From positions 1 to 64,000 of the forward strand of contig NZ_MLJJ01000001.1 of the NCBI RefSeq assembly GCF_002095575.1: a stretch of DNA of 64,000 nucleotides. Direction: 5' to 3'. The position numbers were made by a program, and so were the translations under genes. The notes under the pieces were generated by a model. That model did not search any database and was not told the DNA's origin. It saw only the letters and a list, made by a program, of their open reading frames with translations. Shown piece after piece: positions 21,937-58,925 of this stretch; positions within the stretch are counted from its first letter, which is position 1, and every line of letters begins with the position of its first letter. This stretch comes from Pantoea septica. Its GTDB lineage: Bacteria; Pseudomonadota; Gammaproteobacteria; Enterobacterales; Enterobacteriaceae.

Positions 21937-22506
21937 CGTTTCTGACTCGTTATTCTCACATGAGTGATAAAGCTGCGGGCATAGTTACCCTGGACGAGTT
22001 CTGACCGATGGCCCCGTGACTAAGTGCCTTACGTCAACCTCCCGGTTGTCGACTGCGCGAGGGGCGCAAATAACGTCGGTGGCCTGTTTTTCATAAGGAA
22101 AAACAGCGCCGTTGCGCTGAAATGCCTGAGAGAAATTGATAACTCCTGCATTTCAAACTTCCGTCCAGGCTGCAACCCGCAGCCCGCTAAGTGCCTGAAT
22201 AAACATCACGTCTTACGCCATTGCTGCGTGTGCGTTTCATTCGGCAAAATGACTAATTAGCTCTTTTTCTGGCCTGAAATGCATCAGACGAGAAACTCAA
22301 GCATTATTCCATTGCTAACCTTCATATAGCAAGGCGACTTTTACCGCCGGATGAAGATTAGTGATGCATAACACCTTAATATGTCGGACGAATGAGCAGG
22401 CTGCTGAAAAAGCCAGCGCACGCTGCGCTTTTTCGCGCGACAAGAGGAGAGTTAAGCACAGAAAAAGGGGTGGCGCTATCACAGGACACTATTTAGAATC
22501 GCCGCC
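21937..22506. promoter_or_regulatory. rne 5' leader and rne/rluC divergent region
   Basis: This 570-bp gap mostly holds the long rne leader (minus), known in E. coli to bind RNase E and feed back on its own mRNA stability. The hairpin CAACC-GGGA-GGTTG (22035-22048) next to the CGCCCCTCGCGCAG block matches the E. coli hp2/hp3 zone as I remember it. A stem AAAAAGC...GCTTTTT lies at 22407-22433, nearer rluC. The rne start site was not pinned down; AATAAT near 22300 on minus is a possible -10. The small plus-strand frame at 22024-22260 is not called. Confidence 0.65.
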
Positions 22507-55713: not shown

Positions 55714-56502
55714 ATGGGAAGACAGAAAGCAGTGATCAAAGCGCGTCGCGAAGCCAGAAGGGTGCTTCGTAGTGACTCTCGCAGTCATCGTCAGCGCGAA
55801 GAAGAATCGGTCACTTCGCTGGTGCAGATGAGTGGGCTGGATGCAATCGGTATGGCGCGCGACGTGCGCGACCGTTCGCCGATCGCCGCCAGGAACGATG
55901 CTCAGGCGCACTATCTCCAGGCCATAGAATCGAAGCAGCTGATCTTTGCAACCGGCGAAGCTGGATGCGGTAAAACCTGGATCAGCGCCGCGAAAGCGGC
56001 AGAGGCCCTGATACATAAGGATATCGACAGGATTATCGTCACGCGTCCGGTGCTACAGGCCGATGAAGATCTGGGATTCCTGCCAGGGGATATCTCAGAA
56101 AAATTCGCCCCGTACTTCCGGCCGGTCTACGACGTTCTGGTTAAACGTCTTGGCGCTTCCTTTATGCAGTACTGTCTGCGACCCGAAATCGGCAAGGTGG
56201 AAATCGCGCCTTTTGCCTATATGCGCGGTCGTACCTTTGAAAACGCGGTGGTGATCCTCGATGAGGCGCAAAACGTGACCGCGGCCCAGATGAAGATGTT
56301 CCTGACGCGCCTTGGCGAAAACGTCACGGTGATTGTTAACGGCGATATTACCCAGTGCGACTTGCCCGCTGGGGTCTCTTCCGGTCTCGCGGACGCGCTG
56401 GCGCGATTCGAAGAGGACGAGATGGTCGGCATTGTCCGCTTCGGCAAAGATGACTGCGTGCGTTCGGCGCTTTGTCAGCGCACGCTGCATGCGTATGGTT
56501 GA
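55714..56502 (+). CDS. phoH: PhoH, phosphate-starvation ATPase
   Basis: P-loop ATPase of 262 aa, start MGRQKAVIKARREARRVLRS after TAAGGTGCGACT. Walker A GEAGCGKTW near 82-90 and Walker B VVILDEAQNV. E. coli PhoH was long annotated as 354 aa; the short form beginning here is the conserved part. Nucleotide-binding with a suggested RNA link; role not firmly known. Followed by a strong terminator. Confidence 0.95.
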   Translation: MGRQKAVIKARREARRVLRSDSRSHRQREEESVTSLVQMSGLDAIGMARDVRDRSPIAARNDAQAHYLQAIESKQLIFATGEAGCGKTWISAAKAAEALIHKDIDRIIVTRPVLQADEDLGFLPGDISEKFAPYFRPVYDVLVKRLGASFMQYCLRPEIGKVEIAPFAYMRGRTFENAVVILDEAQNVTAAQMKMFLTRLGENVTVIVNGDITQCDLPAGVSSGLADALARFEEDEMVGIVRFGKDDCVRSALCQRTLHAYG

Positions 56503-58421: not shown

Positions 58422-58597
58422 TGGCGGTGAGAGGGGGATTGACTCGCTGCGCTCGCCCTGCGGGCAGCGTCGCAGGCTCCGCTGTCCAACGGGCTGCGCC
58501 CGTTGTCGAACCCCGGCGGGGGTTCTCATACCCCTCTCATCAAGGAATATGCAAAAAAAAATGCCTGAACATCAGTTCAGGCATTTTCTTGAATTTG
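58422..58597 (-). repeat. tRNA-Ser-derived tandem repeat, distal unit (176 bp)
   Basis: Begins on plus with TGGCGGTGAGAGGGGGATT, the complement of the tRNA-Ser 3' end, then a GC-rich palindromic block (CAACGGGC-GCA-GCCCGTTG among others), and a hairpin terminator copy at 58553-58584. It repeats almost base for base in the next unit. Confidence 0.92.
58553..58584 (-). terminator. Second terminator copy in the tRNA-Ser repeats
   Basis: On minus, ATGCCTGAAC-TGAT-GTTCAGGCAT then T8. A duplicate of the one that directly follows tRNA-Ser. Confidence 0.85.
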
Positions 58598-58771
58598 TGG
58601 CGGTGAGAGGGGGATTGACTCGCTGCGCTCGCCCTGCGGGCAGCGTCGCAGGCTCCGCTGTCCAACGGGCTGCGCCCGTTGTCGAACCCCGGCGGGGGTG
58701 CTCATACCCCTCTCATCGAGGAATATGCAAAAAAATGCCTGAACATCAGTTCAGGCATTTCCTTGAATTTG
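58598..58771 (-). repeat. tRNA-Ser-derived tandem repeat, proximal unit (174 bp)
   Basis: Directly follows tRNA-Ser in the direction of transcription. Same build as the distal unit: a 19-base copy of the tRNA 3' end, GC-rich palindromes with a T-loop-like GGTTCGAC, and a terminator hairpin. Differences between units are a few bases in the loop and A-run length. Confidence 0.92.
58729..58758 (-). terminator. Terminator of tRNA-Ser
   Basis: On minus, ATGCCTGAAC-TGAT-GTTCAGGCAT followed by T6, beginning 14 nt after the tRNA CCA end. Confidence 0.93.
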
Positions 58772-58859
58772 TGGCGGTGAGAGGGGGATTCGAACCCCCG
58801 ATACGTTGCCGTATACACACTTTCCAGGCGTGCTCCTTCAGCCACTCGGACACCTCACC
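58772..58859 (-). tRNA. tRNA-Ser (anticodon GGA)
   Basis: An 88-nt class II tRNA beginning GGTGAGGTGTCCGAGTGG and ending with an encoded CCA. Acceptor GGTGAGG pairs with the 3' side, the anticodon GGA is at 58825-58823 (CTGGAAA loop), a long variable arm TATACGGCAACGTA follows, and the T-loop is GTTCGAATC. It matches E. coli serW/serX, reading UCC/UCU codons. Confidence 0.98.
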
Positions 58860-58896: not shown

Positions 58897-58925
58897 ACTA
58901 TAGGGAGTCGGCCCAAAAGGGTCAA
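58897..58925 (-). promoter_or_regulatory. Sigma-70 promoter of tRNA-Ser
   Basis: On minus, TTGACC, exact 17-nt spacer, TATAGT, then a GC-rich discriminator GCGCCCC, typical of stringently controlled stable-RNA promoters. It lies 38 nt upstream of the mature tRNA. Confidence 0.9.

What the first reader, a model, noticed from the sequence alone, without database searches (positions are those of the whole stretch)
58422..58859. tRNA-Ser followed by tandem repeats of its own 3' end, like rtT of tyrT
Two units of 176 and 174 bp follow tRNA-Ser. Each carries a 19-nt copy of the tRNA 3' end, a GC-rich palindromic block with a T-loop-like GGTTCGAC, and a full terminator. E. coli tyrT has a similar layout (178-bp repeats with tRNA 3' pieces, giving rtT RNA). 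Here a different tRNA shows it. The units could yield small RNAs by tRNA-type 3' processing, act as integration targets, or record past integration events.
Basis: partly seen in the sequence, partly recalled or inferred. Interest (0 to 1): 0.65.

Follow-up and report, generated by a model that had tools for sequence, protein, structure and literature searches.

The report
RtT RNA repeats behind a tRNA-Ser
Two tandem copies of a known but poorly understood RNA element (RtT) sit behind a serine tRNA gene, each built from a direct and an inverted copy of that tRNA's own end; E. coli K-12 has the same arrangement at the same gene, so the occurrence is ordinary while the way the copies track their host tRNA is the interesting part.

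Summary
tRNA-Ser(GGA) (58859-58772, minus strand) is followed by units of 174 and 176 bp, each ending in the tRNA's last 19 nt. They belong to the known Rfam family RtT, RF00391: 46.1 bits for one unit (cut-off 45), 41.4 for the other. The locus is the Pantoea counterpart of E. coli serX, where K-12 has three units. "A different tRNA shows it" is not new: RtT follows Tyr, Pro, Lys, Ser and Gln tRNAs. New, as far as my paper searches reach, is the building rule: a copy of the host tRNA's 3' end, split in the T-loop by a conserved core and preceded by an inverted T-arm copy. Of 35 fetched model hits outside the training family, 33 have a same-strand tRNA just upstream (two lie at contig starts); the last 18 nt equal that tRNA's in 25 of the 33. 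Cores cluster by host tRNA and copies within a genome's locus are alike: vertical inheritance with concerted evolution, not jumping. In two Pantoea relatives an island starts at a unit's tail. Function remains inferred.

The parts
58897..58925 (-). sigma-70-like promoter (TTGACC / 17 / TATAGT) for tRNA-Ser
   Evidence: consensus scan, (10 of 12); not evidence of function on its own
58772..58859 (-). tRNA-Ser(GGA), serX counterpart
   Evidence: ARAGORN; Rfam tRNA; neighbours read by me as DyP peroxidase and PhoH, as efeB and phoH in E. coli strains
58598..58771 (-). RtT unit 1 (174 nt)
   Evidence: repeat; RF00391 41.4 bits, below the cut-off of 45
58729..58760 (-). hairpin plus T-run (terminator-like) in unit 1
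   Evidence: sequence; stretch 58724-58771 folds at -23.8 kcal/mol, z -6.95; the scan lists this hairpin on the + strand only
58693..58717 (-). imperfect inverted copy of the tRNA-Ser T-arm and part of the acceptor strand, unit 1
   Evidence: sequence against the reverse complement of the tRNA 3' end; host-specificity over many units
58682..58690 (-). sense T-arm 5' strand and T-loop start (GGGGTTCGA), unit 1
   Evidence: sequence
58617..58681 (-). RtT core hairpins, unit 1
   Evidence: RF00391 alignment; covarying stems in related Ser units
58598..58616 (-). 19-nt tail identical to the tRNA-Ser 3' end, unit 1
   Evidence: 0 mismatches
58422..58597 (-). RtT unit 2 (176 nt)
   Evidence: repeat; RF00391 46.1 bits, cut-off 45
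58558..58587 (-). hairpin plus T-run (terminator-like) in unit 2
   Evidence: sequence; one search lists this hairpin on the + strand only
58517..58541 (-). imperfect inverted copy of the tRNA-Ser T-arm and part of the acceptor strand, unit 2
   Evidence: sequence
58506..58514 (-). sense T-arm 5' strand and T-loop start (GGGGTTCGA), unit 2
   Evidence: sequence
58441..58505 (-). RtT core hairpins, unit 2
   Evidence: RF00391
58422..58440 (-). 19-nt tail identical to the tRNA-Ser 3' end, unit 2
   Evidence: 0 mismatches

Best explanation
The locus is the serX-type tRNA-Ser(GGA) gene followed by a tandem array of two RtT elements. Shown from sequence: each unit is [trailer with terminator-like hairpin] + [inverted copy of the host tRNA T-arm] + [T-arm 5' strand, GGTTCGA] + [conserved hairpin core] + [AATCC...CCA, the rest of the host tRNA]. 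It is a tRNA 3' end with an RNA core in its T-loop, facing an inverted copy of itself. Shown by comparison: the arrangement stays with its tRNA across genera, copies at one tRNA in one genome are kept alike, and copy number changes by whole units (0 to 8 tail copies in Pantoea, 0 to 5 in the E. coli strains looked at), as unequal recombination between the tail-plus-terminator repeats would give. Inferred: the unit is part of the tRNA transcript. In read-through transcripts the inverted arm pairs with the tail to form a helix that ends in the tRNA's own CCA end, so tRNA 3' maturation releases a roughly 170-nt RNA as annotated for E. coli rttR. That RNA would act at the level of tRNA processing or tRNA-based signalling.
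For: RF00391 match of both units (46.1 and 41.4 bits). E. coli K-12: 3 units at serX (46.3, 46.3 and 36.1 bits) and matches at tyrTV, proK and among the lys tRNAs; rttR annotated as 171 nt ending at a unit's tail beside tyrV. Fetched model hits outside the training family: 33 of 35 have a same-strand tRNA upstream, at most 234 nt away; tail identity to it 18/18 in 25 of the 33, 17 in 3, 16 in 3, 14 in 1, 9 in 1. The inverted arm fits its own host better than every host of another amino acid in 132 of 178 units, 26 ties, 20 worse. It tracks host alleles above all 1000 permutations for Tyr, Ser and Gln. Three Pantoea loci (L113, L116, L119) keep an inverted T-arm with the T-loop TTCGAA intact. 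Host-faithful cores: nearest core in another genus has the same host in Tyr 57 of 61, Pro 24 of 25, Lys 11 of 13 (the 2 Ser units of that set had no other Ser genome to match); cores of different hosts are no more alike within a genome (0.646) than between genomes (0.638); same genome and host 0.96-0.98. The tree needs 16 host changes against a shuffled mean of 60. O157 strain 611 has 0 serX units with the same far flank as K-12 with 3. Covarying stems; fold z -2.3 and -3.3. Papers (passages read): rtT RNA as a 175-bp VNTR in Salmonella (PMC2658671); RtT sRNA up at 10 C in Thioalkalivibrio (PMC8092127).
Against: No transcript data for this locus. In Ser, Pro and some Lys units a terminator-like hairpin precedes the core, so little core RNA may be made. 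G-U pairs hardly exceed A-C mismatches in Tyr (58 to 54) and Pro (36 to 26), so selection on RNA rather than DNA structure is not shown. The inverted arm does not track host alleles in Pro (199 against permutation mean 197) and only marginally in Lys (114, permutation maximum 115). 32 of 59 Pantoea tRNA-Ser loci have no tail copy within 1.5 kb (at least three of these are cut by a contig end and some have displaced or damaged arrays), so the array is dispensable. The tree of 68 columns is poorly resolved and Gln rows scatter (7 changes for 9 rows). The MFE folds of the window units hold only about 1.5% of the ensemble.
Confidence: 0.62

Rival explanations
1. The array is a by-product without a function of its own. 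Tandem duplication and template switching at the T-arm palindrome make and correct the copies, and covarying stems reflect such correction, not selection.
For: Copy number 0 to 8 within one genus and frequent absence; homogenised copies; no clear G-U excess in Tyr and Pro; an inverted T-arm alone in L113, L116, L119.
Against: Core features (GGTTCGA, hairpins closed over GNA loops such as CCCGNAGGG) recur behind five tRNA families and in another class of the phylum (alignment; sequences); neutral copies would not be expected to keep them.
Confidence: 0.17
2. The tail copies work as spare attachment sites: integrases that target the tRNA 3' end can use a unit's tail, which spares the tRNA.
For: In Pantoea G146 and G136 an island whose left end resembles the sequence directly behind tRNA-Ser in L135 and L138 starts behind a unit's tail (motif 180 and 95 nt from the tRNA; sequences), and its far end carries the tRNA tail plus terminator again.
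Against: In G146 that tail is diverged and in G136 the unit has lost its core. Other islands used the tRNA's own end and pushed the array away: Pantoea G142, G122, G157 and E. coli L153, L154, L155, and L150, which has a displaced tail but no units (these E. coli hits were picked for lacking the tRNA). So tails do not clearly protect, and this does not explain the core or the inverted arm.
Confidence: 0.12
3. RtT is a mobile element that inserts into T-loops and copies its target to both sides, so the arms match because each insertion copies a new tRNA.
For: One core behind five tRNA families with host-matched direct and inverted arms.
Against: Cores follow the host tRNA, not the genome; no match of the window array in 50,697 phage records; 16 plasmid records match, several of chromosome size, and the one looked at is a chromosomal piece.
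Confidence: 0.05

Closest known systems
RtT RNA, Rfam RF00391 (rttR of E. coli tyrTV)
   Same: Position behind a tRNA on the same strand, unit length near 175 bp, 3' copy of the tRNA end, core sequence and stems, tandem array; both units match the model (one above, one just below the cut-off).
   Different: Host is tRNA-Ser(GGA), not tRNA-Tyr; arms carry the Ser sequence; a terminator-like hairpin precedes each core; some core hairpins differ in length from Tyr units (alignment).
RtT units at E. coli K-12 serX
   Same: Same tRNA, three 181-bp units with the same architecture; in other E. coli strains the serX array is flanked by phoH and efeB, as here.
   Different: Copy number and stem sequences; K-12 itself has ycdU beside the array.
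3'ETS of glyW-cysT-leuZ (tRNA trailer that pairs with RyhB; PMC6191717 passages)
   Same: An RNA released from the 3' side of a tRNA transcript.
   Different: From general knowledge it has no tRNA-end copy and no RtT core; no sRNA target was tested here.
REP/BIME repeats
   Same: Palindromic, GC-rich; PMC2965389 (passage) notes rtT-like similarity in BIME-type attenuators and PMC12306157 (table passage) lists rttR among REP-bearing sRNAs.
   Different: RtT lies behind tRNA genes and copies the tRNA end; in K-12 proK a REP-type (naRNA4) element interrupts an RtT unit as a separate thing.

Membership tests
RtT RNA (RF00391) | Covariance model score at or above the gathering cut-off (45 bits) | tested here: met
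   Unit 2: 46.1 bits; unit 1: 41.4 bits, below the cut-off but 95% identical to unit 2 over 154 nt.
RtT RNA (RF00391) | Directly downstream of a tRNA gene on the same strand | tested here: met
   also 33 of 35 fetched hits outside the training family.
RtT RNA (RF00391) | Unit ends in a copy of the upstream tRNA's 3' end | tested here: met
   19 of 19 nt in both units.
RtT RNA (RF00391) | Conserved stems with compensatory changes | tested here: met
   46 distinct Ser units of the genus show several standard pair types per position, e.g. GC 16, AT 13, CG 4, TA 3 with 7 listed non-pairs at one pair.
RtT RNA (RF00391) | A discrete RNA is released from the tRNA transcript | not testable with these tools
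   No expression data; strong hairpin before the core.
Attachment site of tRNA-targeting integrative elements | An element flanked by direct repeats of the site | tested here: inconclusive
   Not in the window; in relatives G146 and G136 an island lies at a unit's tail, but the order of events is inferred and the tail or unit is damaged.
Mobile element (MITE-like) | Near-identical cores at unrelated sites in one genome | tested here: not met
   Cores of different hosts in one genome 0.646 identical (38 pairs), much as between genomes, 0.638.
REP/BIME | Dispersed between unrelated genes | tested here: not met
   Own genome: 7 RtT matches below E = 1e-4, 5 beside a tRNA and 2 at contig ends with tRNA-Lys tails; an eighth match at E 0.086 in coding-like sequence was set aside.

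The most novel reading that the evidence does not exclude
RtT elements are tRNA companions of Pseudomonadota whose two flanks are repeatedly re-copied from the host tRNA, one directly and one inverted. That would mean a copying process (template switching at the T-arm, or copying from the tRNA itself, with a boundary at A58/A59 in the T-loop) keeps a structured RNA matched to its tRNA over evolutionary time, so that it folds into a tRNA-acceptor mimic with a genuine CCA end.
Probability: 0.2. Interest if true: 0.7.

Novelty: new member of a known kind. Interest (0 to 1): 0.4.

Why it matters
RtT is annotated to this day as processed from the tyrT transcript (note). The comparison here shows one rule for Tyr, Ser, Pro, Lys and Gln tRNAs over many genera: the element is a split copy of its own tRNA's end plus an inverted copy, inherited with that tRNA and kept uniform inside a genome's locus. 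That makes the old question of what rtT RNA does testable at several loci in E. coli K-12 at once, and warns that counting tRNA tails or attachment sites near such tRNAs can mislead.

Tried and rejected
Mobile element reading: rejected as a current process because cores follow the host tRNA, phage records gave no match and the one plasmid hit looked at is a chromosomal piece. G-U against A-C test for RNA-level selection: inconclusive (Tyr 58/54, Pro 36/26, Lys 21/5, Ser 199/69; the Ser count is inflated by the terminator T-run). Model R1 got only 18 base pairs from the automatic structure; I kept it because the tRNA context checks its hits independently. Its columns include the tail, so a tail as such is selected for, but not identity to the neighbouring tRNA. 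Host-allele tracking failed for Pro and was marginal for Lys. Rows dropped before counts: one search used 178 units (length and CCA filters, duplicates removed); one search used 168 of these 178; one unit per locus and host, 115 rows; one search used all 35 fetched loci outside the family, which are the best hits and not all hits; one search left out duplicates L109 and L140 and kept 59 tRNA-Ser(GGA) loci. A text pattern used to count E. coli unit tails misses some units (0 for L154, where two RtT are annotated). An earlier count said 14 of 20 loci reach the Rfam cut-off; recounted, it is 13 of 20, and 10 of 13. G166 (L157) has an insertion at a unit tail without clean repeats and was not counted as an integration. 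The nine answered paper searches gave no description of host-matched or inverted arms in the listings and passages I saw; the library lacks most subscription journals, and the original rtT papers were not read (recalled, or cited through PMC4986893). Passages of PMC4891358 on islands at tRNA-Asn genes were seen and not used.

Full report
Observation. On the minus strand the window carries tRNA-Ser(GGA) at 58859-58772, followed by two units of 174 and 176 nt (58771-58598, 58597-58422). Each ends in the 19 nt AATCCCCCTCTCACCGCCA, identical to the tRNA 3' end; a 154-nt stretch is 95% identical between the units.

What it is. Rfam family RF00391 (RtT RNA) matches unit 2 at 46.1 bits (cut-off 45) and unit 1 at 41.4. 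The own genome has seven RtT matches below E = 1e-4: behind tRNA-Tyr, tRNA-Pro(CGG), tRNA-Pro(TGG), the two window units, and two at contig ends whose tails are the tRNA-Lys end; an eighth match (E 0.086) lies in coding-like sequence and was set aside. In E. coli K-12 the model finds four units at tyrTV, one at proK, five matches among the lys tRNAs (four of them overlap a tRNA gene) and three units 181 bp apart behind serX, tRNA-Ser(GGA), at 46.3, 46.3 and 36.1 bits. In the K-12 stretches fetched only rttR at tyrV is annotated, but NCBI's pipeline labels 'RtT sRNA' beside tRNA-Pro and tRNA-Ser in other E. coli. The window neighbours, which I read as a DyP peroxidase and PhoH, match efeB and phoH beside the serX array of E. 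coli strains. The window locus is thus the counterpart of E. coli serX.

How a unit is built. Read 5' to 3': trailer with hairpin and T-run; an imperfect inverted copy of the T-arm (for unit 2, GATGAGAGGGGTATGAGAACCCCCG against the reverse complement GGTGAGAGGGGGATTCGAACCCCCG); the sense T-arm 5' strand and GGTTCGA; the hairpin core; then AATCC...CCA. The tRNA 3' end is split in the T-loop at A58/A59 (numbering from general knowledge; in the window A58 stands on both sides). The inverted copy is plainest in relatives: L113, L116 and L119 (Pantoea) hold GAGGGGGATTCGAAYCCCCG downstream of the terminator, and L191 (tRNA-Gln) matches the inverted tRNA end over 22 positions with one mismatch.

The arms follow the host. 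Over 178 units of Tyr, Ser, Pro, Lys and Gln tRNAs, the inverted arm scores higher with its own host than with any host of another amino acid in 132, ties in 26 and is worse in 20. Within an amino acid, arms track host alleles beyond 1000 permutations for Tyr (621, permutation maximum 614), Ser (537, 528) and Gln (82, 80), not beyond them for Lys (114, 115) and not for Pro (199, mean 197). Units are related, so these are not independent counts.

Distribution. RF00391 is found in 68 of 119 genomes, one per genus, sampled from the family. A model built from 22 units (R1) hits 64 of 369 genomes of the class, own genome included, in 53 of 272 genera, and 40 of 398 of the phylum sample, among them 19 genomes of one family outside the class. 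All 35 fetched hits outside the training family were checked: 33 have a same-strand tRNA at most 234 nt upstream (Gln, Ser, Tyr, Lys) and two lie at contig starts; the last 18 nt agree with that tRNA in 18 of 18 (25 loci), 17 (3), 16 (3), 14 (1) and 9 (1). These loci are the best hits, not all. Rfam's own cut-off is reached in 13 of 20 and 10 of 13 of such loci, so the spread is largely within the known family.

How it is inherited. With arms and tails removed, the nearest core in another genus belongs to the same tRNA in Tyr 57 of 61, Pro 24 of 25 and Lys 11 of 13; the two Ser units of that set, from one genome, had no Ser partner and fell to Lys. Cores of different tRNAs in one genome (mean identity 0.646) are no closer than in different genomes (0.638), while copies with the same host in one genome are 0.96-0.98 alike. 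A tree of 115 cores needs 16 host changes against a shuffled mean of 60, though with only 68 columns and many open forks. This is vertical descent with the tRNA plus concerted evolution. Copy number is labile: among 59 Pantoea tRNA-Ser(GGA) loci 32 have no tail copy within 1.5 kb and 27 have 1 to 8; some of the 32 are cut by contig ends or have displaced or damaged arrays. E. coli O157 strain 611 has no unit where K-12 has three, with the same far flank and one copy of the roughly 80-bp tail-plus-terminator left; strain 0H23 has five tails by a text pattern. PMC2658671 (one passage read) lists rtT RNA as a 175-bp VNTR.

Integration. In Pantoea G142, G122 and G157 islands have split the tRNA from its array; the array side keeps a tRNA-end copy with CGGGTTCGAA. 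In E. coli L153, L154 and L155 a tyrosine recombinase gene lies just before the displaced array, and in L150 (no units) before the displaced tail; these were picked because the hit lacked the tRNA. In G146 and G136 an island begins behind a unit's tail, its left-end motif 180 and 95 nt from the tRNA, and the tail plus terminator recurs at its far end. In G146 that tail is diverged, and in G136 the unit has lost its core. The G146 stretch holds phage-like reading frames (my reading). So a unit tail can probably serve as an attachment site, but the tRNA's own end is used too, and the order of events is inferred.

How it most likely works. In K-12 the annotated rttR RNA spans a unit and ends at its tail. 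Both window units fold with the inverted arm paired to the tail and the CCA end free (MFE -58.6 and -61.1 kcal/mol, z -2.3 and -3.3), and stems covary among Ser units. I infer that read-through transcripts are trimmed by the tRNA 3' pathway to RNAs with a tRNA-like end. Against this, a hairpin of -23.8 kcal/mol with a T-run precedes the core of unit 1, and unit 2 has the like, and G-U pairs do not clearly exceed A-C mismatches in Tyr and Pro units. Expression elsewhere is reported: RtT sRNA rises at 10 C in Thioalkalivibrio (PMC8092127, passages). A tRNA trailer with a known role is the leuZ 3'ETS (PMC6191717, passages).

Known or new. [quoted passage not shown] PMC7657543 (one passage) names a tandem GA motif in RtT. 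My nine answered paper searches showed no account of host-matched arms or of the inverted T-arm in the listings and passages seen. Verdict: a new member of a known family; ordinary as an occurrence, with a general building rule worth reporting.

Noticed in passing
L146 4276-4360 (E. coli K-12, behind proK): The second RtT unit behind proK is interrupted by a REP-type element that matches Rfam naRNA4.
   Followed up: no
L021 (genome G002), tRNA-Tyr unit of 319 nt: A nested insert of roughly 140 bp with inverted ends (CATTTACTGTTGAAAAC ... GTTTTCAACAATAAATG) sits in the first core hairpin of an RtT unit.
   Followed up: no
L149 (CP073296.1, Klebsiella pneumoniae p4_135077, 3085 bp): A record deposited as a plasmid carries tRNA-Ser(GGA), an RtT unit, a pirin and an isochorismatase gene and no replication gene in its table; it looks like a chromosomal piece.
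   Followed up: partly
window 56304-56497 (-): Rfam Ysr251 match antisense to the PhoH-like reading frame 55714-56502.
   Followed up: no
window 21961-22293 (-): rne 5' UTR element (RF00040).
   Followed up: no
L170 1599-1807 (-): Rfam sX4 (RF02223) scores 105.8 bits over a tRNA-Ser plus the following stretch, so that family seems to include tRNA-Ser sequence.
   Followed up: no
Pro(CGG) units in several genera, e.g. L049, L051, L062, L064: Some units end in GGCACCGACCA where the host tRNA ends in ATCACCGACCA, perhaps the trace of another tRNA-Pro allele.
   Followed up: no
L148 (E. coli K-12 lys tRNA operon): Four of the five RtT model matches there overlap a tRNA-Lys gene, so the short spacer units between lys tRNAs may be reduced forms.
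   Followed up: no
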